A stretch of DNA of 64,000 nt from Haliotis asinina (lineage: Eukaryota > Mollusca > Gastropoda > Lepetellida > Haliotidae), in NCBI RefSeq assembly GCF_037392515.1, contig NC_090288.1, positions 18,632,969-18,696,968 of the forward strand. The letters are read 5' to 3'. Shown in pieces: positions 2,364 through 55,800 of this stretch. Position 1 is the stretch's first letter. Each line of letters opens with the position of its first letter. A program made the translations under genes and the position numbers. The notes beneath the pieces were generated by a model that worked only from the letters and a program-made list of their open reading frames with translations, made no database searches and was not told the origin of the DNA.

Positions 2364-2891
2364 ATGATGTCTTTAGTTCTTGTGAAAACAGTGACTTTGC
2401 TGACTATTTTTACACAAACATTGGACATTTTCAAATGTGAGTTCTCACTGTGTAGCAATGGAAAAACAAGCTGCTATTTTTGGTTAACCCAGTGGACAAG
2501 CTGCAACATGGGCAAAGTTGACAGGATTACCCATGCCAGGGAGTACCTGATTGACATCCAACAAAAGCCCAATCTATCTCTGTGTGCTGATGTGGGCTTG
2601 TTAATTCCCTCACTAACTCAATTATCTGTCAATCAACGTAGACATCCTTTCAGGAGAGGAACAAAGGGAGGAAAGCGTCATCAAAAAGCAACTTGCACTA
2701 TCACTCAAAGTATTTGCAAGACAAACACTCTCACTTGTAAAGTGGGGAATTCTAAACTGAAGATAGCTCTGCTGAATGTCCGGTTTTGCTGCAATAAATG
2801 TGATCTGATTTATGATCTTGTCATAGATCAGGATGTTGACATACTTTTGTTAACAGAGACATGGCTCCGACAATCCGGAACTCTTGAATAA
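2364..2891 (+). pseudogene. CR1/L2-type LINE ORF2, N-terminal and endonuclease start
   Basis: A 175-codon open frame. Its middle carries a basic RRGTKGG stretch, and its end has the opening of an AP-like (APE) endonuclease: LKIALLNVR near codon 132 and DILLLTETWL near codon 160. In CR1/L2 elements these mark the first endonuclease strands. The frame stops just after TETWL. The next bases already read as the region before the reverse transcriptase, so most of the endonuclease, including its catalytic His/Asp residues, has been deleted. The upstream part (codons 1-60) is not recognised. This copy cannot be active. Confidence 0.75.
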
Positions 2892-5715: not shown

Positions 5716-5824
5716 CCGGTACTTTTTACTTGTCTTTGTTCTGTTTTGCTGGTTCACAGGGGATTTCTTACATTGTTTGTCACTGTAAATTTCTTCACAT
5801 GTCAAACTTGATGCCAAACCTGCA

Positions 5825-6691: not shown

Positions 6692-6743
6692 AGGGCTTTT
6701 CCCCAGTTAAGACTTCAAGACATGCAGGGTTTATAAGGGTTCT

Positions 6744-7371
6744 GTGTCACTTCTGGAAGATAATTCTACCCCACGGCCTGTTATTTTGAGGGATACTGAA
6801 GCTCCTCAGTCTCTGATTTTGAAGGATATTTTGCCTTTTTCTGATGAGTCTTCAGCTAACTCAGATGTTTTGCTTCAGGGTATAGGTGGCAATTCCTCTG
6901 CTCCTCTCCATTTTGTGAATTTGACTTCAGATCTGATTTCAGGTGAGGTGAAAGTTGGTGTTCTTGACTCTCCCCCAATTCCGGGTGTCAATTTGTTGAT
7001 CAGTAATGATCTTATGGGGGCCAAAGTTAGCGCTGATCCTATTGTCACTGTATTGCCGGAGAGTTCAGTTAGTACAAAAAAGTTGGAGGATGAATTTCCG
7101 GGTATTTTTCCTTCTTGTGCAGTGACTCGTTCAATGTCAAAAGGCATTTCTTCAAAGACTTCCTTGCAGAATGTTACCATTTATGATTTGTCAGGTACAT
7201 TCATGGATCATTCTTTGTGTGAGGTGGAGACAGATGACTTATCTTCAAAGAATAGTAACTCTGCAGGACTTCTTGATAAGTCAGATAGTTTGTCAGATGG
7301 CGAACACATTCTTTCCAGAGAGCAGCTTATTAGTTCACAGGGTGAGGTTGTTGAAGTAGAAGTTGGCTAGT
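6744..7371 (+). pseudogene. Aspartic protease region of gypsy remnant
   Basis: A 208-codon open frame. Codons 14-24 read ILRDTEAPQSL where gypsy proteases have a D-T/S-G-A active site, so the catalytic Gly is Glu here (GAA at 6798-6800). Later segments (LISNDLMGAKV, AVTRSMSKG) match the linker that follows the protease in this family. Despite the lost active site the frame is open, which may be chance. The first codon shown is a non-ATG start, because the domain is simply the downstream part of a Gag-Pol polyprotein. Confidence 0.7.
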
Positions 7372-8082
7372 AAGGCTGTTTCTTTTGAGGAGGTTAGCAA
7401 GGTTCCAGTTTGTTATTACTACAAGGATGGTGTTCTGATGAGGAAATATAGGTCGCCGGATGTTCCTGCGGAGACTGAATGGAAATTGTACCATCAAATT
7501 GTGGTACCGAAATTATTTCGAAAACATGTGCTTTCATTGGCACATGAAAGTCCCATGGCAGGTCATTTGGGTGTAAACAAAACTTACGAGAGAATTTTGG
7601 CACATTTCTTTTGGCCCAGTTTGAGACAAGATGTAGCTGAATTTTGTAAGTCCTGTCGTGCATGACAAATTGTTGGAAAACCAAATCAGAAAATTCCTTC
7701 CAATCCCTTAAAACCAATACTGGTTTTCGAGGAACCTTTCAGTAGAGTTATTATTGATTGTGTTGGTCCACTACCTAAGACTAAGTCTGGCAATCAGTAT
7801 TTACTCACTATTGTGTGTGCTTCTACCAGATTTCCTGAAGCACTTCTGCTTCATAGGATTGTCCAGTCTTTGATCAAGTTTTTGAAAGTTTCAAAAGAAA
7901 ACATGAAGCTAACTATGACAGAAAGTCAAAAGAGAGAAATTTTACTTGTGGTGAGAAAGTGTTACTTTTGCTTCCCATTCCTGGTCAGCCATTTAGAGCA
8001 AGATATCAAGGTTCATATGTTGTTGACAAAAAGGTTAGCGACACAGACTGAGAAAGAGATTGTGTCATGTCAACATGATTAA
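7363..8082 (+). pseudogene. Integrase of gypsy remnant, core deleted
   Basis: The zinc-binding domain is clear: YYYKDGVLMRKYRSPDVP, HESPMAGHLGVNKTYERI and CKSCRA, where a TGA follows in place of the last zinc-knuckle Cys. The core starts with IIDCVGPLPKTKSGNQY (first catalytic Asp) and STRFPEALLL. It then jumps near 7865 to the C-terminal GPY/F-like region (VLLLLPIPGQPFRARYQG, read in another frame around 7960). The part holding the second Asp and the Glu is therefore absent. Confidence 0.8.
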
Positions 8083-10232: not shown

Positions 10233-13200
10233 CATGTATGACATACCGGAGGGCTGTCAGCACATCAAAACTATGCTGCAATCAGAACAACGATGACAGG
10301 TAAGCCCATACACTGGATTGCGGTTGGTATGTGTCACCCTTAGGACATCTGCAAATATTGTGAATGTGTAAGAAAACATTTCTCTCAGAGATAATATGTT
10401 TTGAAACCAGGTGGTGTTGGGAATGTTATATAATGTCATGTCATGTATTGTAAATAACTTGTATGTCCCAGTGTGATACGACCCGTGAAGGTCCCGGGGT
10501 AGAATAGGCCTTCAGCAACCCATGCTTGCCATAGAAGGTGACTATGCTTGTCGTAAGAGGCGACTAAGGGGATCGGGTGGTCAGACTAGCTGACTTGGTT
10601 GACACATGTCATCGGTTCCCCATTGCGCAGATCGATGCTCATGTTGTTGATCACTGGATCGTCTGGTCCAGACTCGATTATTTACAGACCGTCGCCATAT
10701 AGCTGGAATATTGCAAAGTGCGACGTAAAACTAAACTCACTCACTCACTCACCCAGTGTGATACAATGTCAAGATCAAAGTTTGCAAAAAACATAGCTCT
10801 TGAAATTATCATCAATGACACTAAAGGTCAAATTTTTCTTTAGAGGTCAAACATTCAGACGAATTTATTGGAGGCCAATGAAATTTTGTGCATCTTTAGG
10901 AATTGTCAGGTTAGAGCTCAGATCATAATATAAGAGACATACATGTTTCACACTAAATGTTGTTCATAAAATATGCTTGTTATTTTCAATAAAATGAATA
11001 TGTGTCTTATGTCTGTACTGTTTGGTTTATTATGTAAGTAGTCCTGAAAGAAAAGTAGCATATGCTGATTTCCATTGGATTCTGTTACATTTCACCAACG
11101 GATAGTATATACTTTATCAAACTGGAAGTGCTTCTAATCAGTGTTGTTTTAAACAAAAAGATTTTCTGTTGATGTCATTGATGCTGAAGTGCTTATAACC
11201 TGCTTGTGAATATCTACAGCCACTGGACATCTGGTGCCACAGTTTCACTGCACTGGGCATGTTTCTGTAACTGATGCAGCTAATGCTAATGATGTTTATT
11301 GTTCCTGTGAGCATGGGTTCAAATTGTCAAATTGTAGTAGTTGATGTTAGTAGGTTTGTCAGTAGCATATCCTTGCCTTTTGAAGTGGTAAACATCTGAG
11401 AACTGCATCACTTGTCCTTTCGTCCCACAATGATATAGATATAACTAGAATAGCTGTTGAGTAGCCTAGTAGTTAGAGAATTTGATTATTCCTCATATGG
11501 GTACACTGTGTGATGCCATTTCTCGCACCTCCTGCCATGGTATTCCAGGAATATTGCTTAAAGTGGTGTTTATCCATACTCACTCACTGAGAAAAATGTA
11601 ATACTGTTCAAAGCGATATTAATGAAAACTCACTAATGGGACTGAAACCATCATTATGTTGTATCCTTTGTACATTAAGATGGCAGCAGGTTGGGGTGGG
11701 GCAGGTAGGAAAAATTGGAACTGAGTACCTGCATGTACATACCCAAATCAGAATTGAGTACCTGGAAATGTAACGAATACAGTGCTCCCATCATCTTTCC
11801 GAATATTCAATCACAATTTGACAGATATTATTACAGAAAACTTGATTGGATAAGACATTGGAACTTGTCTTATTCTTTTTAATTTACACCTGTTAACTAA
11901 TATAAAGAGTAACACCATTACTTATATTCCTCATTGAAACACAGAATTGTTCAGTGCCATCGTTACTGTCACTTGACTTCTCACTGCGATAAAATAGTCA
12001 TTAGCAATAACCTCCATTATCCCAACAATACCAAAGATGTAAATGTGTGAATGAAAAACACAAGTTATTTATTCAACGTGTAGACAACTACTGATGTTCT
12101 AACTGAACCTAGAATGTTTTACAGTTACCTTAATGTAAACCTACATGGGGAAATATTTGATTGATGTATTTTCTGACTGGAGAATTCTGCATGATATATA
12201 GACAGGCAGTCTGTTATGCAAATGAGTTAAGCAACATAGCAAAATGCTTCACTTGCATGATCATTTTGCCGTTACAAAACTCAGTTGCATTACAGTTTGC
12301 TTGTTATACGTTACAGAGTACAGACTGTTACAAAGCCGTGAGTAACTCATTAACAACTGTATATGAAATATTTATAGCAGTTTAATTTTCATACTGCCAG
12401 AAGATTATTAAGTAGAGCATTGAAATGCTTTTGTTTGAATGTAATGGATAAAGAAATTGTCTAAATGCTTTATTTTCACGTCTGATGCTGAATCTTGTTT
12501 CCTTCAAGAAACCCCCAAGTGTGCCTGTCCCCAGATGGCAGCACTGTACTGTGCTGGCACCCGGCAGTGGAGTTCCCATACCAACACACAAAGGTAAGAC
12601 ATACCGGTAACACAAAAGGGTGCTTGTAGATGAGGGTCAGATACTGGCTACATTCACTGTTTTGTCATCCATTCGTAGCAATTGAAGTATAGCATCAATG
12701 GGGTCTGTGTTATGACTCTCATGACCTTTGAAGATCTGGATTAGAATTGATCATCAGCAACCAATGCTTGTAAGAGGCAACTAGCAAGATTGGGTGGTCA
12801 GGTTTGCTGACTTTCTTGAGACATATCATCATATTCCAATGCGTAGATCGATGCTTATGCTGTAGATCACTGGATTGTCTGGTCCAGACTTACTTATTTA
12901 CTGGATTATTGAATTCATACAAACAATGTTGTAATGTGACTCAGTTTTTATCCCCCCAGCATGTAATGCAGGGGGGGATATAGTCGTCGTCGCATCTGTC
13001 GTCGCATAGTTCAAAAACCGTTCAATATTTTCAGACCAAACTTGATACATATAATAATCTGGTCCTATGGTTGTGCCTTTTGCTATATACAGTTTTTCCA
13101 TGGAACTTTTTAGTGTTAGTCTATTGGTGGGGTGGGCTTCATTTCCGGAGAACAACTCAAAAACGTTCAGTATTTTTCTGCAAAACTTGGTACATATGTG

Positions 13201-15975
13201 GGGGAGACCCTAAAGTGGTGCCTTTTGCTATATACAGATTTTTGTGATTTACCATTTTCCCAGTTTCCATGGAAATGATTCGGACTTAGTCTCAAAATGG
13301 AGGGATGGGCTTCGTTTTCGACAACTCAAAAACTATTTAATATCTTTCAGCAAAACTTGGCAGACCACAAAGTAGTGCCTTTTGCTATTTACAAAGTTTG
13401 GGTATTTTCATTTTTCCTGGTTTCCATTGAAACAATTTGGACTTAGTCTCAAAATGGAGAGATGGGCTTCGTTTCTGGAGCACAACTCAAAAAACTATGT
13501 CATATCTTTCAACAGATCTTGGCAGACATATGAGACAGATCTTGAAGTGGTTCCTCTTGCTGTTTACATATATATGGCATTTATATTTTTCATGATTTCC
13601 ATAAATGGATACGTAGTCTAAAAAGTCATCAAGTAACTGTCAGATGATTTGTCCTTTCAAATATCTGGGGGCCGGGGGGATATGTCATCTTCTGATGACT
13701 CTTGTTATATCATATGGACAAACTTTGTGGATGAGCAATTTCTTTACACAGATGATGAGATAGTTCAATACAGATTCTTATATCGTTGTCAAGCTAGTAT
13801 AGTTGTCATACCAGTTTGAAAACGATACAAGAATCTGTATTGAAATGGTGCATTATCTGAATAAAGAAATTGTTCATCTATAAAGCTTGTCCATAAATTA
13901 CTGTCCAACTTCTATATAATGCCACTCAAAGCAGCTTTTTTAATGTTTATCAGTTGATTTTGTGAACATTTTTGGATGCTACAGCAAAAAGGTTCTAGAT
14001 TGTGCTAATCATTTTTCTTTTTAGATTCTTCTGAAATGCAAAGACAAATATGCCCAGTCTCATGTGTCATGAAAAGGTTAGAGGATTAGGTCATGAGTAG
14101 GAGAACCATGAAAATACTTGTGGTTATGTCCTTAGTTTACTGACTTCCAAATTTACGTGTGAGACATCTAATTTGGTAATGTGGAAATGGTCCATGATTC
14201 AGGTTTCTGTCATGGAAATGTTCAGTGTTATCATGATTATCAGTCAGTTTCTATCTACTGCTTTCAGCCTATTCCACGAAAGATTGAAGAATTAGCAGAG
14301 GTAAGTTCATTTCCTTCGCTAAAGTGTAGTTTGACTGACATGGTTAACATACAGTTTAGAATTTTAGGTCATATGTGTAATTTTCATGATTTTCAACGCT
14401 TCACAGGGTTTTAGCTCACTTCACAAACATAGGAGTCCTAGAGACCTCCAGTTATTAGTTGTAAGGGTAACTCTATGACAATATGAGAGTCCTGTGAAAT
14501 AACGGTCAAGAGATGTTTATTTTTTCACATTTCTTTAGGGCTTGGAATGAATCATTGAGCATGAGAGGTGAAGAATGATATGTTGCACGAAACTGCTCTG
14601 AAAGAAACAACCAAACACTTAGTAAAGTCATGGATGTGTTGTGGATACAGTCACTAATATTGTGTGTTCCTCTGGATGCAGCGAATATTTTGGGGGGGTT
14701 CAGTCTCTACACTTATGTGTACTGGACATACATTTGCATGACTTGTAAAACCCTGCCTTAATTGAAAATCAGAGAGAATGATGTCAATAATATTTTATTT
14801 TTGTTTTAAGTGTATCAAGGTTTTACACACTACAGAAATGCACATCCTGTAGGTATTAAGGTTTATAATGGTTGCCCCAAGAGATACTTTTTATTCATGG
14901 TCACTGATGTTTGACAAGAAATATACAGTTCCTGTTATATACATCCTGTAGGTATTAAGGTTTATAATGGTTGCCCCAAGAGATACTTTTTATTCATGGT
15001 CACTGATGTTTGACAAGAAATATACAGTTCCTGTTATATACATGATTTTTACGTCTTATAGTACAGTGCACTACACTACATTATTGATGTACATAAACCT
15101 TATAATGAGACAACTTGAAAATAATAATTGGGGATCTCAGATGCCTTTGGGTTATCAGAAGGGTGATCACTACAAGCAGGTATATTTGCTGGAAGACATC
15201 TTCTAACGAAATCCAGTATCATGACCATGATGTCATGATTTTGTAAATGGATGTCTATGAGCAGGTTGTGAATGTAACCTTAGAAAGAATTCAAACTGGT
15301 TAAATTAGGGATGTTTTCTTTGCACTAAAATATTGAATCCTTCAGCACACTTGATAGAAATCTGGTGTTATATGTTACATGTGTTGTTTCTTGTTGGAGG
15401 TACTGATGTTGACAATGTTGCCTCTATATAGGGGGAGTCAGTGCTTAAGGTGCAGTACCTTGTGTCAGAGAAACTGAAACATCGAGAGGACGGTCCAACT
15501 GACAAGGAGCTTGCCAACATATTCTTCACATCTAAACACCGGTGGTATTCACAGTACGTTGTACATTTCCATGTCATCAATTGTTTTTACAGGAGCCCAA
15601 CAAGAGTGTCATATTGATATTTTCAAGTGTCCTGCTATTTAGACAATTTTAAGAGACATAATATTTATCTACATATGAAAACTCTCTAGGGTATATTTTA
15701 ATTTTTCCTGAATTTTGATTGATCCAGATTGCCAGAATGGGTGCTGTACTCAAAGGGCTTAAGGGCTTTAGATATCTAAGTGTATCGACTCGGCTTACTT
15801 CAGCATTTTCCCCCAAAAGTTCTTTTACAATGCTGTTGTCATTTGCTAGATGCAAGAGAAATGTGCACGAGAGTGGAGGTTTGTGTTCAATTCCTGTATG
15901 CTGCTGCTTTATCTTCACAGGCCACAGAAGAAGTACAGGAAAGTTCGAACCCCAAAAGACAGGGACAGGATTTAG
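10233..15975 (+). CDS. MRPL42: Mitochondrial ribosomal protein L42 (mL42), five exons
   Basis: A component of the large subunit of the mitochondrial ribosome. Exons 10233-10299, 12509-12593, 14268-14300, 15432-15553 and 15921-15975 are each bounded by AG and GT, and their phases agree throughout. The fourth exon uses the donor CA|GTACGT. Diagnostic mL42 sequence is HPAVEFPYQHTK joined across the intron to PIPRK, and later FFTSKHRWY and the basic end KVRTPKDRDRI before TAG at 15973. I recall human mL42 having HPSVDIPYEHTKPIPR, TKHRWY and PPKDR at the same places. ATG 10238-10240 gives a short Arg/Ser-rich N-terminus that could act as a mitochondrial targeting sequence, but an upstream exon is possible. 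One exon is only 33 bp. Introns hold SINEs and foldback repeats. Confidence 0.88.
10487..10753 (+). mobile_element. Abalone-type SINE, full copy
   Basis: It runs from CGTGAAGGTCCCGGGGTAGA to ACTAAACTCACTCACTCACTC. The core contains GATCGATGCTCATGTTGTTG and CTGGAATATTGC. The same sequence recurs at 29318-29600 and, inverted, at 20022-20272. It sits in an MRPL42 intron. Confidence 0.85.
11455..11588 (+). mobile_element. tRNA-derived SINE, degraded
   Basis: The head TAGCCTAGTAGTTAGAGAAT resembles a tRNA A-box region. It is followed by CATATGGGTACACTGTGTGA and a tail GGAATATTGCTTAAAGTGGT ending in ACTCACTCACT. The tail is shared with the other SINE family in the window although the head differs. 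Located in an MRPL42 intron. Confidence 0.65.
12735..12902 (+). mobile_element. Abalone-type SINE, 3'-truncated degraded copy
   Basis: It aligns by eye with the 10487-10753 copy from GATTAGAATTGATCATCAGC to TCTGGTCCAGACTTACTTAT, but lacks the CTGGAATATTGC...CACTCACT tail. Confidence 0.6.
12948..13690. repeat. Interspersed repeat with internal ~145-bp tandem units
   Basis: Bounded by G-rich ends (CAGGGGGGGATATAGTCGTC at about 12968; GGGGGCCGGGGGGATATGTC at about 13667). The interior repeats a unit about four times with the order 'AACTCAAAAAC...TTTCAGCAAAACTTGG...GTGGTGCCTTTTGCTAT...TTTCCATGGAAATGATTCGG...TCTCAAAATGGAG'. The units are diverged. Lies in an MRPL42 intron. Confidence 0.7.
13711..13897. 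repeat. Foldback (inverted-repeat) element
   Basis: Two arms of about 85 bp face each other: ATGGACAAACTTTGTGGATG...TTCAATACAGATTCTTATAT against ACAAGAATCTGTATTGAA...CTTGTCCAT, with a loop near 13795-13815. A related half-unit with GGATAACAACTTCTG and TTTCAATACAGGTTCTTGTG occurs near 21515-21580. Confidence 0.75.
14842..15039. repeat. Perfect 99-bp tandem duplication
   Basis: The unit ACATCCTGTAGGTATTAAGG... at 14842-14940 is repeated without change at 14941-15039. Perfect identity in an intron means the duplication is recent or an assembly artefact. Confidence 0.9.
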
Positions 15976-36729: not shown

Positions 36730-37475
36730 TGAAATTAGTGACTTTGTGGAGTGGTGTAATTCAAATTTTCTAGTTTTTAAATGTAAACAAAGCAAAAGAA
36801 ATGATAATTGATTTCAGGAAAGATAAATTATCTAACTCACCAGTAAACATAAATGACAAGGACATTGAAGTAGTTGAGGAATACAAATATTTCGGTACTA
36901 TTTCAGACTCTAAATTATGGAATTCTAACACTGGCAGTATATACAAAAAAATGCAAGCAGTGATTGCATTTTCTGTGGAGATTAAAACACTTCAAGTTAG
37001 ACCAAACCATTATGGTGCTTTGTTATGGAAGTTTTATCCAGACTGTTCTAACTTTTAATTTTCTATGCTGTTATGGGAATCTGTCAATTCAAAACAGAAA
37101 GAAATTGCTCAAAATTCTTAAGGCTGCATAAAAAAATTGGTCTATTGGAAAGTATCAGCTATTTTTATGAGCAGCAAATTATCAAAAAGACAAACAAAAT
37201 CCTAAGGGACCCGACTCATGTTCTAGTTTCAGAATATTCCATTTTCCCTTCAGGCCATAGACTGTGTGTGCCGACATTACAAACAAACATGGACCGCCAT
37301 TCTTTTTTACCTTCAAGTATACATGAAATAAACAAGAAAAGGGATTGCATGTGATTTTAGAGATTGCTGTTCTTTGATGCTTTTTGTTGTGTATGGATGT
37401 TTTTATGTTTATTTTAATGTGATTGAGACCTGAAGTGAAAATTTCCACTATATGGTGTGGACAATAAGGTGTTGT
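36730..37475 (+). pseudogene. Non-LTR retrotransposon RT C-terminal fragment
   Basis: Broken frames carry the post-palm part of a LINE reverse transcriptase: FVEWCNSNFLVF, AKEMIIDFRKDK, VEEYKYFGTISDSKL, then KKTNKILRDPTHVLVSEYSI and HSFLPSSIHEINKK. Motifs A to C of the polymerase are missing, so the copy is 5' truncated. Frameshifts occur near 36790, 37058 and 37180. It ends in the simple-repeat tail at 37476. Clade not assigned. It lies in the first intron of the IHO1-like gene. Confidence 0.75.
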
Positions 37476-37565
37476 CTCGTCTTGTCTTGTCTTGTCTTGT
37501 CTTGTCTTGTCTTGTCTTGTCTTGTCTTGTCTTGTCTTGTCTTGTCTTGTCTTGTCTTGTCTTGT
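37476..37565. repeat. (TCTTG)n microsatellite, about 18 units
   Basis: Ninety bases of TCTTG repeats, first unit imperfect (TCTCG). It directly follows the LINE fragment and so is probably its 3' tail, later expanded. Confidence 0.95.
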
Positions 37566-37566
37566 A

Positions 37567-37700
37567 AGTGAGTAAGTATGGTTTGCACTGTTTTTAACAA
37601 CATTCCAGCAATTTCATGGCAGGGAACATGCATTGTACCCAAGTGGAGAATTGAACACAAGCCATTCTACACCACAGTGGTAGAATGAGTGACTGCATTA
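37567..37700 (-). mobile_element. tRNA-derived SINE, inverted, degraded
   Basis: Minus-strand copy: GTGAGTAAGTATGGTTTGCA, AACATTCCAGCAATTTCATG, TGCATTGTACCCAAGTGGAG and ATTGAACACAAGCC. Related to the element at 11455. Confidence 0.6.
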
Positions 37701-40800: not shown

Positions 40801-43800
40801 GAAGGGATGATGTGTTCAAAATGTTCATCAAACATGGGTGGGACTCAAGATCATCAAGGTTTAGGCCAGTTCCTCACCCAACAAGTTCTTGTACCTTTCT
40901 GCCTTTCTTGCTCAACAAACTCACTGTACTCTTGTTCTGCTTTCAGTGAAAATTGCAGGTAACAAGCATTCAACATGTTGAAAGCTGTAAACTTGTTCAT
41001 GTTCCATGGGTGAATTCTGTATACCAAATGATGAACTTGTTTCATAACCACATATTTTTTTACCCTTCCTTGTCATATCACACTGTACATGGTGTTGACG
41101 TAAGAACTGTGTGAGACCTACAGAAACATACTACCAATAAGGACAACAACTCATTCCAAACTTAGAAATGTGTAGAAACATACTACAAACGCCTTCAGAA
41201 CAATTCATTTTGTTTGAACACATTTACACGGAATAGCATAATAACTGAGAACATAATACAGTCAAGTTAGGTCAGTTTGCAAATGGGATGGACATGGTGG
41301 AAACTGTGTAATGTAATTGATGCCTGACTGCTCTGAGTCCACATATGTCATCAGTGAGATTGAAGTATGGTAGTACCGTTAATAACAGTGCAATCTCATT
41401 AAGGTATATTGTCACTCCATCCCATTTTACAAAAGGTAGAATGCTGGACATATTCATCGTTCTCAAGCACCCTTCCATCCCTATACCTGCATAGTGTAAC
41501 CATGCATTTACTTCTCCACAGGTCAAGGTAATCCTGTGGGTATTCAAGGTCCCTCTCATTACCTGATTGCCTTATCTGAGATACTGTGTGTAACCATTGC
41601 TCTACCAACAGCAAAGCATCCTGTGCAGAGTCAACCATCAACTTTCGCAGATTCAGCAATTTTTACTTTCTTCCTAGACTATAAAACTGGATGAAACTTT
41701 AATTCTTAATTCTTTTTCATGTTTCTTGTGAAAAAAACACCCTTTCAATTTGAGTGATTGTGTTTCAGAATTATGTTTCAAGTCTTTCTACAGTTGACAT
41801 ACTTACTTGCAGGGACTTCCTGCAACAAGTGGTGAACACTGTTCAAGACTGCTCCAAAGAGGTATGCCAAACTACAAATACAAGGGTGTCTGTTTTAAAG
41901 TCATAATGTTGTGTAACAGCGTTCCACCCATGATCACTTTACCGAATATCAGTTTTATATTTTGTACAATAACTTCTTCAGTTTTCACCCGAATGACTTC
42001 CTCTTTTAACAGAAGCTGCTACTGGTGATTTGTGTGTCATTCAATTATTTGTCTAAGTGTGAAGATCTGTTTTAAAACCATCAGAACCTTTGCATTTGTG
42101 TAATGTTATTATTGTTCATCTTTCATAAATGGTGACAAGATTTTTAATACGAAATGTACATTCACTGCAAAAACAAGTATGCAATCACTGCAAATGCAGG
42201 CGGAAAGTCACCCTATCACTGCACCTCTGCAGGACAGTGATTCCCGAGTTTGGTAAGGGGGAGTCGCTCACATTGTACATGCTTCTCCATAAAAATTATC
42301 ATCACCCCAAGTAGTATAATTAATGGTGGTTTTGGACCACCATTAATTAAACTACTAACTACTAATTAATATCAATAACAAAGATCTAGACCCCCATTCA
42401 AAACACTAAACCCAAAATGACACAACTCGTCTCCCATTGACACAAGGTCACAGTGGGGCTATTACCTTTACTACGCGAATGTCGATATATGGAGAACTGG
42501 GTCACAGCAGTGCATGGTCTCGCGTCAGCTGACAACCTATTGGAGAAATGATTTACATGAGGTATGAATCCTACAATATGCCTACGATATGTGAATTAAA
42601 ACTACAAGCGTGTGAAAGGGGATTGCGAAATTACTCTCATATGAGGAAGTCTGAGCTCATTCAATTACTAAAGGAACAAGCCCCTATACAATTACAATTC
42701 ACACCTACTGAGTGTGCTTTGGGGAAATAATTGAGAGGGTGGAAGATGGAAGTTCAAAGAAACATAGACGTTGAAGATGTAAGGCAATTGGTATTTGAAA
42801 AAGTGAATGAAGAACTGAATGATATAAAAGGTATTAAATTTCAACCCACATTAAAGATGACAATAGAGAAAGAACAGAGGAATGATGCTATTGACCAGAC
42901 CATTGTTTACTTCAGGGGTAATCTGGAACCTACAACACAGCCTGATACTATCAACTCTTCTTTTGACAGCTCATTCGTAAAAATTCGTGAATCACTAGAA
43001 CGTTTCACTAATATGGGGTCTGGTTGCGTTATTGTTATGATTAATATAGTCTACCTGGATATAGCAAACTATAAACCATTGAGAGGTGGAACGTCTTACC
43101 CCTGCCTAAGTATTTTAAGAACAAGTACGCTATGGTTAACGTTAAAAATCATGGTAATGATTGAAGGAGGATAGCGGTAAGATCAGCTAAATTTCCTGCT
43201 GAACATCATTCTGACAGACTCTCCAGTTATCCGGAAGATAATGGGATAAATTTGGAAGGTATAGATGAACCCACCCCTATCTCTCAGTGGACAAAAGTTG
43301 AAAAACAGAATCCACACCTAGCCATTTGGACACAAAGGTAATAACGTAATAGTGCACAGGATAAGCCCTTTAATGTATAAGGATGGTCGTAAAACAATCA
43401 ATTTATATATGACACAACAAGGTGAAAAACATCACTACACATGGATCAAGCATTTCAGCCAACTGTCAACGATCAATCAAAACATGGGGGAAAGAAACAC
43501 TTTTGTGAAAGGTGATTTCACGGGTTTTCTTGGGCTGATCTGCTTGATTCACACAGGGATGATTGTCGGGGTGTAGGGCAGACAGCCATAAGGGTAGATA
43601 TGCCGACAGAAAACATCAATATCTTGAAATTTAACAACTATAAAAATCAGATGCTAGTACCATACATTATCTATGCCGATTTTGAAGCTATCAATAAACC
43701 AATCGATACAGTGGCTCCATCCCCTGATAAAAGTTTCACCCAAAGATATCAACAACATGAAGCGTGTGGTTTGGATTTGCGGTCGTTCGTTGTGATGGCG

Positions 43801-46800
43801 TGGCTGAGAAATTTCTCCAATATTTACAGCATGAGGAGGTAGAGATCAGGAAAAAAATTGTATATCGTACAACCAATGCATATGACCTAAGCAGACAGGG
43901 AGGACTATATCAAAAGCACTCATTGTCATGTATGCTGTAAACCTCTGAATGGTGATTCAGTGCGAGACCACTGTCACGTGACAGGGAAATACAGAGGTGC
44001 GGCTCACATTGAGTGTAACTTAAACCCCATTCTTATTAATATTCCGGTGATGTTTCACAATTTACGAGGATATGATTCACACTTGATTATGCAGGCTATT
44101 TCAAAGGTAGAAGGCAAGATATCTTGTATCCCAAACAATATGGAGATAAATATCCTTTTCACTAAATAGGTTGAGATTCATTGATAATGTTCAGTTTCTT
44201 TTGTCGTCTCTAGACAGCTTGGTAAAGGCTAATAACCCAGACGACTTGGCTATAACTAATCAATACACAGAGGAGAAAACTAGAGCCTTGCTGCTATGCA
44301 AGGGTATTTACCCGTATGAATATATGGATGACTGGTCTAGGTTTAATGAAACAGAGTTACCTCCCATTGACTGCTTCTACAGCAAGCTACAAACACGCTA
44401 AAAATGTATGGGAACGACTAGGTTGTAAGACGCTAGGTGATTACCATGATTTATATTTGAAAACGGATGTGTTGAAGCAGGCAGATGTGTTTGAGATATT
44501 CAGAAAAATATGTTTGAAGTAATATGGGTTGGACCCGGCATGGTATTATTCTAGCCCTGTGCTATCGTGGGATGCCTTACTAAAGAAAACAGGTGTGGAG
44601 TTAGAATTATTCACGGTGATTATGATATGCATCTATTTATTGAGAAAGGGTTACGTGGTGGTATTTCCATGGTATCAAAACGTTATGCTAAAGTTAACAA
44701 CAAGTATGTGAAAGTCTATAACCCTGATAAACCTTCAACTCATCCACTCTGTCTCGATGCTAAGAACCTGTACGGCTGGGGTATGACTCAATATTTACCA
44801 ACAGGGGGATTTTAATGGGTGCCCAGTGGGGACTCCCCACACCCCTGTGGACAGCTGGATGTTATTGCACCTGATTCTGATAAGGGTTATATACTTGAAG
44901 TGGACTTAGAATACTTAAAGGAATTGCATACATCACCAGTGTTCACGAATAGCATCTGACCCTCTGACAAATCTGGCAGATTCACCAGTGGTCAGATAGG
45001 AATCACCAACCAGCCCCAGTGTCTGACTGAATATTTCACAATGTATTTGTGTGAAGTTGTCATTTGTGGCATGTGACACTTGTTTGCTGTCTATAAATCT
45101 TATGTTTGTTATCATATAATGTTAATAATTTCCATGCCAATTGTAAGAAATGTTAAATCTGAAAAGTTTAACTTTATTCTGTGGGTCCTGTGAATTTTAA
45201 GTGGGTGAGGCAGAACACAACAGTTACCCACTAGCATCGAGAGATTCAATCACTCCTTAGCCGAATGTTTGTTTGCACACCGATACTCACGTGACTTAGT
45301 GGGAGGATCCCCCACACCCCCTCTGGCTGCACATTACTCAGCTGTCCGCAGGACCCCCAATACAGAATGGGTAGTACGACTTCCTCATGTGGTTGACTCA
45401 GTGAATCGTGAAGTAACTAGGCTACTCAAAAAGAGGCCTGTAGATGCAATCCGTATGAAATCCATTGTACTTCAGCTGTCCGCAGCACCCACAGGGTTGT
45501 GGGGTTCCCCCACGATTCCAGATCGCGCACTCGTTAGATATTTATATTAACCAGGTGAATACGAGGGAGACACCCGTAGACGTGCTACAGATCCTATCTG
45601 GTCAATGAAAACATATAATATCGATTGAGTGGATGTCAAAGCAGGGGAGTCTAACCTGTACTTCCTGGTAAATGGGCCGCATAGAGGATTCGTACGTGAG
45701 GAATTACAAATCATACCTTGATCTTAAACAGGCGTTTAACTTCTTTGATGTAGTCCTTTTTCTTATCATAAATAAGCTGAAACCGCTTTCTATCCACGTC
45801 ATGCTCTTTGCATAAACGATAATGACCTTTCACCCCCCTACCACACACTGAACATGTGTAATTGATCTTTATGATGATGAGCACAATAACCTTGGCTGTT
45901 GCTCATTTTACCACAAATTTCGTTTTTCCCTATAAGTACCCAGTTGCAAACGTGTCTCATTTTGTGATATATTAATTTGTGAAATTGGTCTACTTGTTTC
46001 ACGATTAACACTGTCACCGCTAAAAGTATGATGAAGATCAATTCGTGATCTTTCTGTCCCTCTGAAGGAGTGTAATACTATGTCATGGTTGGTTCACTTA
46101 ATGGTTCCAGTTGTTTACCCGTTAATAATTAGTATTCTTTCATAGCTTCGTCAACGTCTGTGAAAGTTCTGACTTCATGGTTTTTGCGCTGGAGTATTGT
46201 GTCACTTTCTCTCTGCCTCTATCTCAGCCTCGTTTGACTTTCAATTGTGAAAACAGGAAATTACTCCCGGAAAATGCTAGTGCATTCACAAGAGCCCCAC
46301 CAACCATCAATGCCACCATAGCCATGTTATATATATTACTTTGAAATATTTTCAGGCATAATATCTTGCTTTACCAAGACATCCTTGGTGGCCATTGCCA
46401 TACCAATGTTCATAGTAAGCATAAACATGTCTTACATGTCAAAGTCGAGTTTTATAGTTGGTTGCTTGATGATCATTTTAGTCACATGAGAATACCCTAC
46501 TGCTAACTCGGAAACCACAAATGCGTAGTAGGCGTCGTTAACAAACATTTTTCCCTCAGACATAATATATATTATAATATATAATTTTAATTATAACATA
46601 ATATGAGGGTCAATAGTGTGGGTCTCCCCCACACACCCCAGTGGACTTATTTGGGTGACTTGCAGTGGGGAGTCTGCAACTGGCTGTGCTTGTGGTGGCT
46701 TGTTGTTAGCTGTCCGCAGGGCATATAATGAAACAACAGCAGTGGCTACTACACCACCTACACCCACCCATAATTTATAATTATGTTTATTGTGCCTGGC

Positions 46801-49800
46801 TAAGGTGTTTCTTCTGCCAGCCTCAACTCTTTTTGGGTTCTTCTTCTTGGTGACTTGTGTCACAGGTACCGGCGGTCGTCTGTCCTCTGGGCTCTTCACT
46901 TTGCAGTCTGTTGGGGTATGTGGTGTCCATCACTTGGCTGTCCGCCATCTTGTATGATATTATTGTTATTATTTGTTTTGTTAAATTTACAATGCTTTGC
47001 CGTGATAATCGCTGCCGTCATTGGGGCCAGATACATGCCATATTTGTGGTACAAAGCACAACTTATATAACTCAAGGCATCATCGATAAACGGGTCCTTC
47101 TCAAAGTCCTCCCACAAACAGAGATGATGTTCCAGTGGGATTGGTAAAAAGTGCGACACTATGCCGGTGTAAATCTGGGTAATAGTAGAACCTATGACTT
47201 TTGTCATCTCGGCCCCGAGTTCTGCCTCGTATCTAGTGTATAATTTACTGATTTCCTCATCCGACATTTTCTCAATCTTATCAGCGGTTATGTTGTCACC
47301 TAAATATTGCTTTCCCTTACCACCCACGACTGGCGTTAACAGTCTATCACGCTGCTTGTTGTCCTTTTCTTCCTCTGCAGATAACATCTGGTCTAGTAAT
47401 TCATCCGCCTCCATTTTTATAATATTTACTCTAGTTTTTCTTTTTAAAAAACAATATCCAACATACACTAAACACATAGAGATAAAGGTTAGATTACTAT
47501 AACTTCAAAAACAATGGAGGGGTCCTGCAGACATCCAACTGCAAGTTCCCCCATAGCCCCACTGCAGGTCATTACTAATCTATTGCGAGGTAATTACTAA
47601 AACATTACTAAAATTTACTAACATTTACTGAAATTGCTAGGTCATTACTAGGCTGACCTCAGGTTATTACTAAGCCGACTGCAAGTCACCACAGGTCATT
47701 ACTAAATATTGGGGGTGGGGGTGGGGGTCACCAAACCAAAAATGTGGGTTCCCCCCATACCCCCCAGCCGACTGCAAGTCCCTGCGGATGACTTACCCCC
47801 GAAAGTTGTTCAATATCTTCAAGCTACCAGATCCAAACATGTTGTAGTCAGCCATCCACAGGACCCTATACAGCGTGCTACACAAGTGTCGGATAGTATC
47901 AAAAAACTGTTGAGTATGTATTGGGATAAGCCGTTGCCGGGATTTGAATTTCCATTGAGGGAACTGTACGGTCTAGACGAAACCATGAAATGCGTACGCA
48001 GTGAACTCAGCAAGCCAAACTCAGCAAAACGGAAAATGATGATATGAAGCATTGTATCATGGAACGACTAAGCAATTTAGAAGACGAGAGATGCATGTGA
48101 TTGGAATCTGCTTCCTCGAATCATGAACAGTTTTGATCCCAGATCAGCCACATACGAGAAACAATTGATAGAATACTGAATGAGGATACAACTTTAGCCT
48201 ACAGGATTCGAATATTGTTCCGTGAGCAAGGCATCACCATTGCCAGTGTTTTGATGGCATTAGGTTGCATCATATCAACCATTGTAGTATCTGTTATTGG
48301 AGGACCGCAGGTCCCCACACCCCGGAGTCGTGGTGATGATATTAGAAACTGGATAAAAAAAACATCTGCAATCACTCGGGGGAAGCCTTGGCTAAACTCA
48401 CTGGTAAGGCTGCAGAAGCCCTGCCTGGTATCATAGGTACTATCGTATCATGGTTGCTTAGTACGCTGGGTAAAACCGTCACATGGCTTGGTCAAAATCT
48501 GTGGGCATTCATCGTCGCAGTGGCTGGTCGCAGTGGCTGGTCTCGTGTACGTTGCAGCTGGGGAATTTTTAGCCAAATAAGGTGGGGGGTATCCCCACAC
48601 CCCCACTATGGAATTTTGAACCATGTAAGACACAACCGGCCACAACACCTCCAACGGCCAGCACTGTTTTATAATCGATATGTTGTTGAATTGACGCCTG
48701 CACTGTGGGGGAGACCGTGTGAACTTGTGATAGTCTGTACGCTGACTCTGGTAGTGTTGCACTGTACCAGTTTCACCAGCATGTGTGACGTTGGAGACGC
48801 TTATATCAGCATTAACACCTAATTTTTTATCTGCTGTAGTGATGATTATTTCATTGTTGTAGCCCGTTATTGTATTTATTCTCATACACATATCACTCGG
48901 AGCCATGTACAATCCCACACCGAACAAATAGTCAACCTTTGACCTGGCATATTGCAACGTGTCCTGGTATCGTTTTATAGCGCTAGGTAGATCTACCGGT
49001 GATGCAATAGCATCCTCAATATTAACCATGAATTGTTTCGTCGTAAGCGGTTCCCTTACCTATGATAATTGAGCGCGTCTGTGATTGAGCGCCAAGAATA
49101 GCCCACACATATGTTCGAATAGAGTCGTTCAAGCGTATTGTACCAGCACGAGTGAATCCTTAAGATGTTTGATGTTTTTGATATCATTTTTGCCCAAGCC
49201 CCAAGATCAGTTTGCTTTATGTGGCTATCATGGATCTGTTCATTCATTGTGGGGCTCGTAAATGTATGACGGCGGGGGTTGTATGTACCATCTACAGAAC
49301 TAAGCATATATGTTCTAGACTTACAGAAGAACATGTAAACTTTACCGAGACTGTGGTTCACACCTGGAAGACGAAAGTCTTTATTTGTTGGAATCATGAA
49401 CTCCCCACAAATATGTTCGTACGCGCGTTTATCATATGGGTTATTTGTCATACTCCACACTTTATCTTGGGGGAGAGGAGCACTTATTTCCTTCAATATC
49501 TATCTCGTTTGATAATAAACATGAAACAAGACTGCCTTACTCAGTTCGTCTATACCGTAGTCTAGTGTCACACCCGACCCTGTCGTCGCACACCACACAG
49601 CAAAGTTGAGTTGGTTCTGACAAAATTGCATCGGGTTTTGATTCGAGTTTACCACCACCTGTGCGTTATTGACGGTCACGATACAGTTTTCAAAGATATC
49701 AATAAAAGCTGTTTTAAAACTCGTGCCATGGACAAACATTGACTCCAGAAAAAAATCATCTGATCTTTGTCGATGGAAAAAGGTTCTTCATACCGGATGG

Positions 49801-52800
49801 TTACTACAGTGTGTGTTCTCTCAATGATGAAATTTTCAAAGACTTGGGAGCAAAATTTATAATAAGTGACTCAAACGGAACATTGGTGTTAGACAATTCC
49901 AAAGGATCACACAACCTGAGATTCAGTGAACCGTTTGTGAGAATGCTAGGATTTACAACGATTGACTATGCACAGGAAATAACCCCTGGCATAAAAATCA
50001 TTGGCATGTGGTTACCAGATCTAATTCCATACCACAAGCTATGCGTTCATCTTAGCACAACAGATAATATACAAAGTGAGCATCCTTCCACGTTATTGAG
50101 GGCCGTCCCGATTAAAACAGAAAAATGCACCGAGTCATTTTTTATCGCGCCAATATAAAAAATTAGTAAATGGTAATTAAGAGTATCAATTTGTAAATAT
50201 AGGATACCTAAGCGTAACACTACATATACAAAATGGCTAGTAATCAAGGACCGGGAATGCGAATAAAGAGATGTGTTAATACAAGTTTATCCAACCTACG
50301 TGATGCTAGAGGGTTTGATGATGTAGGAACAGATGGTAAAATATACCCTTTTAAGCTTATGAACAGCATTTACAAACCAGTTGAAGTTCCCACCGTTTGT
50401 AGTAATTTAAACCTAGAGTAATTTAAACCTAGATACATCAGGATCTGACAGCAACACACGATACAACATAGTTCGCAACAATGCTGATGAATGGAGAATA
50501 CACCCATCGTTCGGTGGTAAATTGCTTGATTTAGAAGACTTTGATAGACCAACAAACGTTCAAAACAAACCGTACTATCTAATGCTCACTGACGACAACA
50601 GGTGGATGATATTACCATCTCAAATCAAATGGCTTCTCAACGTAACACCAATTTCACCATACATTTTCATGGAAAATTAAGACCACTACTTTAACAAAGT
50701 CGTAAACCATGGAATCCTACTCGCGGCTTACGTCCCATCCCAGAGACGCAGTGTAACCATCACAACAGTCTCAATTAGAGCAGCCCACATGCTGTCGTGT
50801 AAACCCGGAGATAGCGAGGTATTACAGTTGGTTACTGAATTCGATAGTGTGACTACCATCATGGAGAATCCCAGACAATTCCACGCTAGTCACTCAGGTC
50901 TAGCTAGGTGGACCACTGCAGAATGATTTTGAGATTGTGAAAGGAATAAAACTCCAGTGGGCTAAAAAACACCAGGGCAGAGTTTGCTCAATGTACGTGT
51001 GGGTGGGTGGTGATTCACGCACCAGTATACAAGGTGTCACAGTGTTAGTGGAAGACACTGTATCTCTAACCAAGATTTTCCTAACCAAGCACATCAATCT
51101 TATTAGTTTAAAGTTCATACATGTGGTATTGTCAGAAAAACAATTGGAAACTGTTTTCTAACAGTTTTATAAACGAAGGTAAGCTCTAATGTATTACTCG
51201 GTGATCTAGGACACACAAAGAGATTCAATTTACCTAGTGAGGAAAACACCCCTTACCTCTTTTACTTTAAAGATAACGTTTACAAACGAATGCCACTAGA
51301 AGATTTTACAGATCTTGAATGGCCTTGATTAAAAAAACTCTAACAAACCCTTATATCGTTTTTAATAAAAATTATTATGTTTCTAAAATTACTAACAACG
51401 GCATACTGAATTCCAGGTCGCAATGGCAACATGCTAGCACCAGTCGACTCGAATGCCAGTTTAGTCATTCACAGTATATACGATTACCAACGTGATTTTT
51501 TTCTTGATTCATATGGTATGATACCACACACAACAATATTTATAGACGTATATCTCACAAACATTTCCGAGCCAAGAATATATTTAGATGGTCTTAGAAC
51601 ATTTTGGCTTAAAAACCATGAGAATAAACGATGCCGAATTGTTATAAAGCAGGGCTACCCACCATCAATAAGCCTGGATGGTGTTCATATTATGGATGAA
51701 AACACGTCTAATAAGATCTCTCCCATTTACCTTGTACGATAATTTAAACCTCATGAGCTTAAAATGTATCAATCAAAAATTTAATGACATATAATTAAAA
51801 ACTAATTTATAAACTATATTATAGACAAACAGAATGGGGCTGTATCCGACCGTAGACGAAGAAGGAAATATTAAAGGCAGTGCAGATGGATTTCGACTGA
51901 AACAGATATGCAAAATACGTCAGCTAGAACAAGAGCGTGATACTCGGGCATCACTACATCAAAAATACAATAGAGCCTTAAACTACATAGATAGAGCTGA
52001 CACCACCGTAATGGCAGCTAGCATGGGATTAGGAGCAGTAGGAGTTGAATTGTTGACAACAGTCGTAGCCGCTCCGGATCCGGTGGTGTTAGGATTTGAA
52101 TTAGCAGCCGTAGTGGTGGGAACAGTTGGGTCAGTGTTTAAATTTGTATCCCAGAAATTGAATCGTAAAGTAAAGAAACAAGATGAAATTAGAATACTTG
52201 CTGTATCAAAATTAAACACGATAGAAGATCATGGTTCCACCGCACTCAATGACAATAAAATCTCAGAAGAGGAGTTTTGTTTGATCATAAGCGAACTAGA
52301 AAAATACAACAAAATGAAAAATGAGCTGACCTCTAGCCGGCTGCAAGCCTCTGCACCACCTGCGTATTCACCCTATTAGAGATTTGTTCACACCTATGTA
52401 TAACGATGGAAGTGTGGCGAGCTGAAAACATATCTTGGAGAGATGCTGAGTCTCTGATTGTTGACAAACTCGAAGAATTAGGGCCTGGCGGCTATCTATT
52501 AACTCTTGTTATTAATAAAGATGTCCACAAGGAGGATTTTCTGACTGATTTCAATGTTGATAATATAAAATTACACATATCCGAGTACCAAGATACCTAC
52601 ATAAGACTTGAATACGACACTGAACCCATAATCGATTTAGTTACTCTAAATATAGACCTTGATTGGTATCATTGTAGTCATTGTGATCAGCCAGGCGGTG
52701 AGCCCAACTTTATCAATAATGCATATCACAGTTGCCATAGAGCTGTCATGTGATTACAGTGTTAAATATAGTATATGCTTACTGATATGGCTATACATAC

Positions 52801-55800
52801 ACACATCTTTATTTTTCATTGTGCTGTGACTCAGCCAGACAATATCCATCGTGCTATACACAGCGTCTCGTTGCCATAGAGCTATCACGTGATCACAGTG
52901 TTGATAACACAGGATAGACCTGTTAAACTGCGATTATAGCTCTAGGTCCTGGGTAGCTCAATCGGTTTAGGTGTGGGCTTGTGTTCATTTGCGCAGCTGT
53001 TCATTGGGAGTTTGTATTCCGCCGTTGCCTCAGTTTGACTCCCTTGCACAAATTTCATGACGCAAGGGTCAAGTGGCCCTTGCAACTTTCGTGAACAAGG
53101 GGACTTTCACGTAGTAAAGGTGATAGCCCCACTGTGACGTGTGAATGGGAGACTGTTTGTGTCATTTCTGGGTTTAGTGTTTTGAATGGGGGTCTAGATC
53201 TTTTGTTATTGATATTAATTAGTAGTTTAATTAATGGTGATCCAAAACCACCATTAATTATACTACTCCCCGAACTATAAATTATAAATGGTCCTTTATG
53301 TAAGTCTGTACAAAACTTGATGCAAGCAATACTAGATGTTGCCAACAATACCTGTTAGCAATGAGAAGACCCTATTTGATAACAAAAGCATGAGATAAAA
53401 ACTATGGGATAACTGTTCTGTGTTTATCATTCTTAATAAATTGTGTATTTGGAAAAGACATTATGGTTCACGCCTGTGGTTTCCAGCACAAACAAGGGTA
53501 GAAAGAAAAATGTGAAATGTGTTTCTTTCATTATGATATATTTTTGGCTGTTTAAGAATTTCATGCAATTGCAAGATGCTCTCCTGATGTATATATCTAC
53601 TTTTGCAGGTTAGACTGACTTTAAGTGCTGTAAGAGAAAGGTTGGAACAAACTGCAGATCAGTCTGAACAAAATCTGCAACAAATCATAACAGCATGTAA
53701 GTATTTCAGTGATTATATGGGAAAGGAACATTACCTTCACTACCTTCAACATTTTTTTTGCACTGAAGTATGAAACACAACGCATCATTTTTATGAACAA
53801 AACTGATTGTTAACTGACAAAGTATTGGTAGTAAGATTATTTAGAGCTTATCAAAATTTGTTGATACTCCTACATATTTATGTCCCCACCACATATGTTT
53901 GGGGGCATTTAGGGTTACCCTCTGTGTCCATCCATTCGTTTATGCAAAACAGAAATGTACTCTACCCACTCTAATGGTGTGCATGTCATATTTTGTTTTT
54001 GCTCTTGATTGTTTTGGGGTTTTTTTTGTAAGTTTAGAGACATTAGAACAAAGGTACATTTTGCCGAATTTCTCTGAGATGATAGTGTAACAAGGGACAG
54101 AGGGTGTAGGGTAGGAAGTGGCTGTGGGAGTAAGTCATCCACTTCTCCTCCAAAACTATGTTATGGAATTCAGTGAACTAATACATGGGCTATCGTGGGT
54201 GCATGTCATATTTTTTTATTTTATTGGGTTTTTTTGTAAGTAAAGAGACATTTGAACTTAAGTACATTTTGCTGAATTTCTCTATGATGACAGTGTAATA
54301 GGGAACAAGGAGGGGATGTACATTATCCACTTCTCAAAAACTACCGTATGGAATTCATTTAGATTACACATGTGCTATTATATAGGGACTCTAAAGGTGT
54401 GCATCTCATATTTTGATTTTGTATTTTATATATTTTTTTCTGTTTTTAATGCAGTTTGAACTTACATTAATTTTGTTGAATTTCCCTCTGAATATAGTGT
54501 TATAGGGAAAGTCTATGTTATCCACTTCTGCTCAAAAACTACTTTATGGAATTTATGTAGATTTCACAAGTCCTTTAAAAAGACTCTAAAGGTGTGCATC
54601 TCATAGTTTAATTTTTCCAATTTAAATGGAGTTTGAACATACATAAGTTTTGTTAATTGTCTCTCTGAATATAATGTTATAGGGGATGAAGTCTATCCAC
54701 TTATCCACAAAATCTGCTCAACCGAATTGATTAATGTATACCTTCTTCATCCAATTTCTTAATTTTGTCACTTCTACAGATGTGTGAACTTACAGTACTG
54801 TGAAAAATGCTACAAAAATGGTTATCACCTTGTATTTTCTCATCTCAACTCTCTTCAGATCATAACCTGAAGTCAGTCTGCATTATTGAGGCCTCGAAAA
54901 TGTGTAGTATATCAATTATTTTGTGTGTGAGATGTGTAGGTTCTATGTAACACAATAATCCTGTTCACCCGGTATACGAGTGTATGTACTTCACAATCAC
55001 ATGCTTCAAGCGCTGCATCAGCAACACCAATAGCAACACAGAGAAGCTTGTTCACAACGTCATTAAACGGTGTTTAAAACTCCTCAAATTCCAAGCCAGA
55101 CAGATGGACTGGTAATGTTACCTGAGGGTGTCGGGGTGTTATACCCTCTCCCTAGGCAATCTGTATTTCCTCCACTCTTTGTCTGGGGATGATGTAGCTA
55201 GACGATATACTCAAGGATAAGTCCTTTTATTTTTGGTATAGTTTTTCACAAACAAAGGTCCTCAAATATTTCCTAGTTGCTGGTCTAAACACAACATTAG
55301 TTTACACCATCCTGGAAGAACTTGTTGGTTTCTGGCACAACTTCTGATACTACAAGTTCATCTGAGCCATTCTCTCAATATACAGAGAGAACCTCTCAAG
55401 TCAACGGTGGGGCCCAGAATCGCGCACCACTCACCGGACAGCTAACAAAATAGAAGTCGTGACAATTTAGGCTCCTCCCCCCCGAAATAATGTCCTACGT
55501 CATACAAAAATGACTCATACCCAATCTTAATAATTAGTTATGTTCATTAGTCCCTTTCCGAAACTTTATCAGTACCATCAAATTCTTCAAGTATAAAATA
55601 TCTTCGTTAATCAACTTTTAGCCATTCATCAACCAAACATTGACATATCTGACAAAATATCAAATAATATTTCAGACTGGTAGATGCCAGAAGATACTTA
55701 AACAAATTATTTCCGATCCTCTGCGTGTCCCTTTTATTGACACACTGACTATTAGTATCCGAATGTCCATCTGCCTAATCATGTAGGATCACAAGGTCCT

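What the first reader, a model, noticed from the sequence alone, without database searches (positions are those of the whole stretch)
42310..53267. A TIR-bounded PolB/integrase element with a largely unrecognised gene set
Seen: long inverted repeats starting AG, PolB and integrase remnants, and about ten further genes on both strands. Known: Polintons/Mavericks and adintoviruses carry PolB, integrase, packaging ATPase, cysteine protease and two capsid proteins. I find no FtsK/HerA-type ATPase and no adenain-like protease, and most other frames match nothing I can name. Either this copy has lost that block, or it belongs to a lineage with a different gene set.
Basis: partly seen in the sequence, partly recalled or inferred. 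Interest (0 to 1): 0.88.

Follow-up and report, generated by a model that had tools for sequence, protein, structure and literature searches.

The report
Decayed Polinton missing its capsid block
This is the worn-out, partly deleted copy of a virus-like mobile element (a Polinton) in an animal genome; other copies in the same genome still carry the packaging motor and a likely capsid gene that this copy has lost, and a sister family has multiplied very recently.

Summary
The inverted repeats and the PolB and integrase remnants are real and lie where reported. The "unrecognised gene set" is largely explained: the window copy lacks about 2.1 kb (47,685-47,902) that a copy on contig C6, 92% identical over the first kb, still has. 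There C6 holds packaging-ATPase and capsid-candidate frames. A 14.2-kb sister element on C11 carries an A32/FtsK-type ATPase (Pox_A32 E 1.1e-8), an rve integrase (2e-10), a Rho_N/Endonuclease VII PolB and a 434-aa protein with only weak Capsid_N matches. No adenain/Ulp1 protease family was found in 15 of 15 frames scanned of the sister element.

Unusual: the target-site duplication is 5 bp (3 of 3 other copies with both ends read; recalled norm 6); one subfamily has hairpin-forming termini; and the sister family's capsid-candidate gene occurs in at least 97 places at 98-100% identity (the best 97 of 2,749 candidates were scored), 94 without a stop, a very recent burst. About ten genes, several with membrane segments, remain unnamed.

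The parts
42310..42483 (+). left TIR; first 47 nt form a terminal hairpin
53102..53267 (-). right TIR; outermost 47 nt form a terminal hairpin
42305..42309 (.). left 5-bp target duplication (CCCCA)
   Evidence: 4 of 5 match to right flank; 5 of 5 in copies C11a and C7 and C11b (read from the flanks printed)
53268..53272 (.). right 5-bp target duplication (CCCCG)
42548..42727 (+). Rho_N domain, N-terminal part of the PolB gene in the sister copy
   Evidence: PF07498 E 1.9e-7; in one frame with PolB in L027:4548-8261
42731..44935 (+). PolB remnant, broken in several frames; Exo I-like YADFEA 43672, Endonuclease VII-like stretch 43921-44019, Exo II-like HNLRGYD 44056, Exo III-like YLKTD 44454, motif A-like LDAKNLYG 44753; C-terminal part not found
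   Evidence: motif names recalled
45236..45718 (+). integrase remnant, C-terminal part only (residues 171-315 of 326)
   Evidence: sister copy rve PF00665 E 2e-10
45714..45860 (-). small Cys/His-rich protein, possible zinc binder
   Evidence: 95% (L013) and 65% (L027) identical in copies; no Pfam family above cut-off
45841..46325 (-). small membrane-segment protein(s), broken
   Evidence: hydrophobic segments; copies
46339..46563 (-). small protein with one in-frame stop
46594..46899 (-). 102-aa protein with one hydrophobic segment
46899..47414 (-). 172-aa protein, unknown
47685..47902 (.). deletion site: 217 bp here, about 2346 bp in copy C6, where ATPase and capsid-candidate frames lie
47706..48600 (+). 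protein with hydrophobic helices, broken (399 aa in sister copy)
48635..49739 (-). protein of about 400 aa with C-terminal membrane anchor, broken in several frames
   Evidence: 34 relatives; anchor remnant 48635-48700; anchor in 26 of 34 relatives
49739..50158 (+). 139-aa protein, unknown
50233..51327 (+). protein of about 320 aa, broken; candidate minor virion protein (inference)
51431..51742 (+). 103-aa protein, similar to a second gene of the preceding kind in the sister copy
51834..52379 (+). 181-aa protein with two hydrophobic segments, open frame, starts MG
   Evidence: 7 relatives at 42-48% identity
52406..52753 (+). 115-aa protein, unknown

Best explanation
The segment 42310-53267 is an old, inactive copy of an integrated Polinton/Maverick-type element. 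The intact kind would copy itself with its own PolB, package its DNA into particles with an A32/FtsK-type ATPase, and insert into chromosomes with a retrovirus-like integrase that duplicates 5 bp of target. Shown: TIRs, PolB and integrase remnants, absence of about 2.1 kb that in a near relative holds ATPase and capsid-candidate frames, absence of PolB residues 880-1238 and integrase residues 1-170, and counterparts in open frames elsewhere in the genome. Inferred: that the 434-aa protein is a double-jelly-roll capsid protein, that the neighbouring unnamed genes (several with membrane segments) are virion or entry components, and that particles form.
For: TIRs. PolB and integrase remnants match the sister copy. 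Sister copy domains: Pox_A32 E 1.1e-8, rve 2e-10, Endonuclease_7 8.4e-6, Rho_N 3.7e-11, all above cut-off; Capsid_N 0.012, below cut-off. DNA_pol_B_2 1.5e-5 and 4.4e-4 in copies C11a and C3, below cut-off. The C6 copy, 92% identical over the first kb, has the window's genes in the same order plus ATPase and capsid-candidate frames in a stretch of about 2346 bp that is 217 bp in the window. Of 9 fetched copies with the same TIR (C5 in one 10-kb stretch only), capsid-candidate remnants are in 3 (C6, C2, C3), ATPase remnants in 4 (C6, C3, C9, C11a), either in 5 (tblastn E <= 1e-4). No capsid or ATPase remnant was found in the window's element. Published Maverick PolB also carries an Endonuclease VII domain (PMC5803895, passages).
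Against: The capsid match is below Pfam's cut-off in both copies that gave one, and the C-terminal piece in C6 gave none; phmmer against PDB gives nothing meaningful. DNA_pol_B_2 was not reported for the sister copy's own PolB. No adenain/Ulp1 protease family in 15 of 15 frames. PolB-Int lies inverted in the sister copy relative to the window, so the sister copy is not a simple undeleted version. Four of 9 same-TIR copies (C5, C7, C13, C16) show neither ATPase nor capsid remnant in what was fetched. TSD 5 bp instead of the 6 bp I recall for Polintons.
Confidence: 0.93

Rival explanations
1. The lineage never had ATPase and capsid genes; its particles or spread use a different gene set.
For: None of the window's pieces match ATPase, protease or capsid families above cut-off (Pfam on 30 pieces; PHROGs on 10; NCBIfam on 10; motifs).
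Against: ATPase and capsid-candidate genes in copies of the same lineage, same place, same genome.
Confidence: 0.04
2. The window belongs to a deleted, non-autonomous subfamily that was copied in its deleted form by intact relatives.
For: C5, C7, C13 and C16 copies also show no ATPase or capsid remnants in what was fetched; the C7 copy is only about 6 kb between TIRs.
Against: The C6 copy, the best match at the left end, keeps the block; I did not look for a second copy with the same deletion junction.
Confidence: 0.12
3. The lineage has a maturation protease that sequence profiles miss, or the protease-like domain known from polinton PolB does the job.
For: A vOTU cysteine protease domain in polinton PolB is described (PMC11071308, abstract and section 11); PolB here is 1238 aa with a long N-terminal part.
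Against: Not tested: no fold of that part was made. The protease was identifiable in only 74% of 72 published Polintons (PMC4028283 section 4), so it may simply be missing.
Confidence: 0.5
4. The block of small membrane proteins is host or other transposon DNA captured by chance.
For: Most have no known family.
Against: The same genes, in the same order, 33-95% identical in several copies including the sister family.
Confidence: 0.03

Closest known systems
Polintons/Mavericks (Polintoviricetes)
   Same: TIRs, PolB, rve integrase, A32/FtsK-type packaging ATPase, probable Capsid_N-type major capsid protein
   Different: no recognised Ulp1/adenain protease; 5-bp target duplication (6 bp recalled); about ten unnamed genes, several with membrane segments
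Sf Maverick 1 and 2 of Spodoptera cells (PMC5803895, passages)
   Same: PolB with recombination endonuclease VII domain, integrase, A32-like ATPase
   Different: those carry a protease frame and a parvovirus-VP1-like CAP frame; here neither was recognised
Adintoviruses and meldviruses (Buck et al., PMC11071296 section 16)
   Same: PolB plus rve integrase; published cases pair these with unusual virion proteins
   Different: no sequence of theirs was on hand, so the hexon relationship is untested
The nine Polintons reported to lack MCP, protease and ATPase together (of 72, PMC4028283 section 4)
   Same: gene content of the window copy as it stands
   Different: here the loss is a deletion in this copy; relatives keep ATPase and capsid candidate

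Membership tests
[quoted passage not shown]
   PolB remnant to 44935 matches a 1238-aa frame; DNA_pol_B_2 E 1.5e-5 and 4.4e-4 in copies C11a and C3, below the 25.8-bit cut-off, not reported for the 1238-aa frame itself, where Endonuclease_7 and Rho_N are above cut-off. Protein priming itself not testable
Polinton/Maverick | retrovirus-like integrase | tested here: met
   PF00665 E 2e-10 in sister copy; window keeps residues 171-315 only
Polinton/Maverick | FtsK/A32-type packaging ATPase | tested here: met
   not in window; Pox_A32 E 1.1e-8 in sister copy, same gene in C6, C3, C9, C11a copies
[quoted passage not shown]
[quoted passage not shown]
   no family match for any candidate; fold of one candidate failed
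Polinton/Maverick | Ulp1/adenain-type cysteine protease | tested here: not met
   no such Pfam family in 15 of 15 frames of the sister copy; identifiable in 74% of published Polintons, so not obligatory
Polinton/Maverick | long TIRs beginning AG | tested here: met
   one of 12 termini (C2) begins GG
Polinton/Maverick | 6-bp target-site duplication (recalled) | tested here: not met
   5 bp, 5 of 5 identical in C11a and C7 and C11b (flanks); 4 of 5 in window
Adintovirus | hexon recognisable by BLASTp and PolB with OTU-like domain | not testable with these tools

The most novel reading that the evidence does not exclude
An animal genome holds a Polinton lineage in the middle of, or just after, a large burst: at least 97 near-identical copies of its capsid-candidate gene, mostly open, from a lineage without a recognised protease, with an integrase that duplicates 5 bp and a particle module rich in membrane proteins, which may still move or form particles.
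Probability: 0.4. Interest if true: 0.65.

Novelty: new member of a known kind. Interest (0 to 1): 0.4.

Why it matters
The window copy itself is ordinary decay. The wider point is that a Polinton lineage with a packaging ATPase and a probable capsid gene has expanded very recently in this genome, and Polintons have long been thought to be viruses without a demonstrated particle in animals (my knowledge). A genome with many young copies is a place where insertion polymorphism, expression and particles can be looked for.

Tried and rejected
IMG/VR scans with four protein queries and two alignments of this element's genes, and two DNA patterns of one PolB motif: no relative. GTDB contigs with two alignments: none. 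Homology search of the 139-aa protein: none. Two structure predictions failed: the anchored protein from a 27-sequence alignment, mean pLDDT 36.7, and the 139-aa protein alone, 34.6; no fold search was run on them. PDB sequence searches: nothing meaningful. Rfam: none at gathering threshold in 42000-53600. ARAGORN: no tRNA in the window. I considered that hairpin ends define the whole lineage and rejected it: the C11b sister element has only a weak fold there, as do the C13 and C16 termini. I considered 'a lineage with no packaging module' and dropped it once other copies could be read.

Papers: PMC11071308 abstract, sections 4 and 11, passages; PMC11071296 abstract and outline, section 16, passages; PMC4028283 abstract, section 4, passages; PMC5803895, PMC4046053, PMC4981718, PMC6431247, PMC3671162 passages only; Starrett 2021 and Kapitonov & Jurka 2006 not held, recalled. 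The paper searches were made; in the listings I saw no report of this element, of a 5-bp duplication or of hairpin-ended Polinton TIRs, but for most papers only listed titles and abstract starts were seen. Palindromes inside TIRs are reported for casposons (PMC4046053, passage).
Full report
OBSERVATION. The inverted repeats are at the reported coordinates: 42310-42483 and 53102-53267, 156 of 164 aligned bases identical. Between them, PolB pieces run from about 42,580 to 44,935 in several frames and an integrase C-terminal piece lies at 45,236-45,718. About a dozen other genes follow on both strands. The element has 15 stop-free frames of 100 or more codons against a mean of 2.1 in 200 shuffles; comparable stretches of the window have 3-13, some of them transposon-coded by look. 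No Walker A in six frames, no convincing Ulp1 pattern. Of 30 pieces scanned with Pfam only Rho_N at 42548-42727 passes its cut-off (E 1.9e-7); Endonuclease_7 at 43891-44166 falls below it (20 against 23.6 bits). PHROGs on 10 pieces gave nothing better than E 0.14, NCBIfam on 10 nothing above cut-off.

RELATIVES OUTSIDE. The 181-aa gene (51834-52379) has 7 relatives at 42-48% identity. The minus-strand gene at 48,635-49,739 has 34 relatives; one is a named Haliotis rubra protein (P0040) and one comes from a Sedimenticola MAG (P0027), so the host is plausibly a mollusc (inference). In 26 of 34 the protein ends in a hydrophobic anchor (P0039's segment, of other sequence, not counted); the window keeps a remnant of it in another frame at 48,635-48,700.

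OTHER COPIES IN THE SAME GENOME. The genome has 1.14 Gb in 159 contigs. The first kb of the element gave 66 matching pieces, 40 of 477 candidates being scored. I read nine copies that share the TIR: C6, C9, C11a, C2, C3, C7, C13, C16 in 16 stretches and C5 in one; and, lying beside C11a, a sister element C11b (C11 27,136,691-27,150,847; 14,157 bp; 325-bp inverted repeat 99.1% identical). In C6, C9, C11a, C2, C3 and C11b the window's genes recur with the same neighbours, apart from the PolB-integrase block of C11b.

THE MISSING BLOCK. Against C6 the window has 217 bp (47,685-47,902) where C6 has about 2,346 bp. That stretch of C6 holds an ATPase frame with GQTGCGKT and pieces of a protein that matches the 434-aa frame of C11b. 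In C11b the ATPase (212 aa) hits Pox_A32 at E 1.1e-8, above cut-off; the integrase hits rve at 2e-10; PolB (1238 aa) hits Rho_N and Endonuclease_7 above cut-off, while DNA_pol_B_2 was not reported for it and was found below cut-off in C11a and C3. The 434-aa protein hits Capsid_N at 0.012 and a piece in the C3 copy at 0.041, both below cut-off, and the C-terminal piece in C6 hits nothing, so the capsid reading rests on weak matches plus its place beside the ATPase. Of the nine same-TIR copies, 3 have capsid-candidate remnants (C6, C2, C3), 4 have ATPase remnants (C6, C3, C9, C11a) and 4 show neither in what was fetched (C5, C7, C13, C16). No trace of either was found in the window's element. 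A second loss in the window takes PolB residues 880-1238 and integrase residues 1-170. Hence the window copy is a Polinton with deletions.

WHAT STAYS UNUSUAL. (a) No adenain/Ulp1 protease family in 15 of 15 frames of C11b (10, 5). Published Polintons have an identifiable protease in 74% (PMC4028283 section 4), so absence alone is not new. (b) Target duplication 5 bp: C11a CAAGT, C7 CTTCT, C11b GATGT (read from the flanks printed), 5 of 5 each; the window CCCCA/CCCCG, 4 of 5. The 6-bp norm is recalled. (c) The termini of the window's subfamily fold as 47-nt hairpins: z -8.6 and -7.5 with DNA parameters; in 10 of 12 termini read, RNA-parameter energies are -16.4 to -26.3, in C13 and C16 -8.5 and -5.9 (no shuffles). 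On 10 termini (9 distinct; C13, C16 and C11b left out) 94.2% of cells pair and 4 of 500 shuffles reach the covariation score; but only one pair changes on both sides (4 cells), which 483 of 500 shuffles equal as a count of pairs, and 172 of 500 equal the number of pair types. Left and right ends of one copy are not independent. So the hairpin is real and kept, and the covariation is slight. The sister family C11b lacks it, so the lineage as a whole does not need it. (d) PolB-Int stands inverted in C11b relative to the window. (e) Several genes have membrane segments: the anchored protein, the 181-aa protein, the broken gene at 47.7-48.6 kb, and small minus-strand genes.

A RECENT BURST. A search of the genome with the 434-aa protein scored the best 97 of 2,749 first-look candidates; the 97 (the query's own place included) match over the full length or all but one residue at 98-100% identity, and 94 have no stop. 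The number of places is a lower bound; the identities are those of the best-ranked ones. The window's own subfamily is older: its TIRs differ at 8 of 164 positions, C11a's at 17 of 190, C7's at 11 of 176. Whether the young family moves today was not tested.

MECHANISM. Steps shown: inverted repeats, target duplication, replication and integration genes, packaging ATPase in relatives. Steps inferred from established knowledge of Polintons: protein-primed copying by PolB, packaging into particles, entry into new cells or genomes, insertion by the integrase. The membrane-segment proteins are probably virion or entry components; this is inference only.

VERDICT. Ordinary as a single locus, a new member of a known kind. 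The novelty is in the lineage: a recent, large expansion, a 5-bp duplication, no recognised protease and some ten unnamed conserved genes.

Noticed in passing
42310-42356 and 53221-53267: Both termini of the TIR are 47-nt hairpin-forming palindromes, kept in 10 of 12 termini read but absent in the sister family; one compensatory position.
   Followed up: yes
L014, L025, L027 (C11 27136691-27150847) and the places: Sister element family with at least 97 near-identical capsid-candidate genes in the genome, a very recent burst.
   Followed up: partly
2355-4576: Frames that look like a non-LTR retrotransposon (reverse transcriptase-like), by eye only.
   Followed up: no
5789-8079: Frames that look like a Ty3/gypsy-type retrotransposon, by eye only.
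   Followed up: no
13126-13706 and L009:4235-4807: A repeat in the window matches an insert inside the C6 copy (tblastn E 8.8e-21); the insert's frame has a weak CD59-like Pfam match, below cut-off.
   Followed up: no
44936-45208: About 270 bp without match to the sister PolB or integrase lie between the PolB and integrase remnants; origin unknown.
   Followed up: no
37449-37585: Short-unit tandem array (unit about 5 bp).
   Followed up: no
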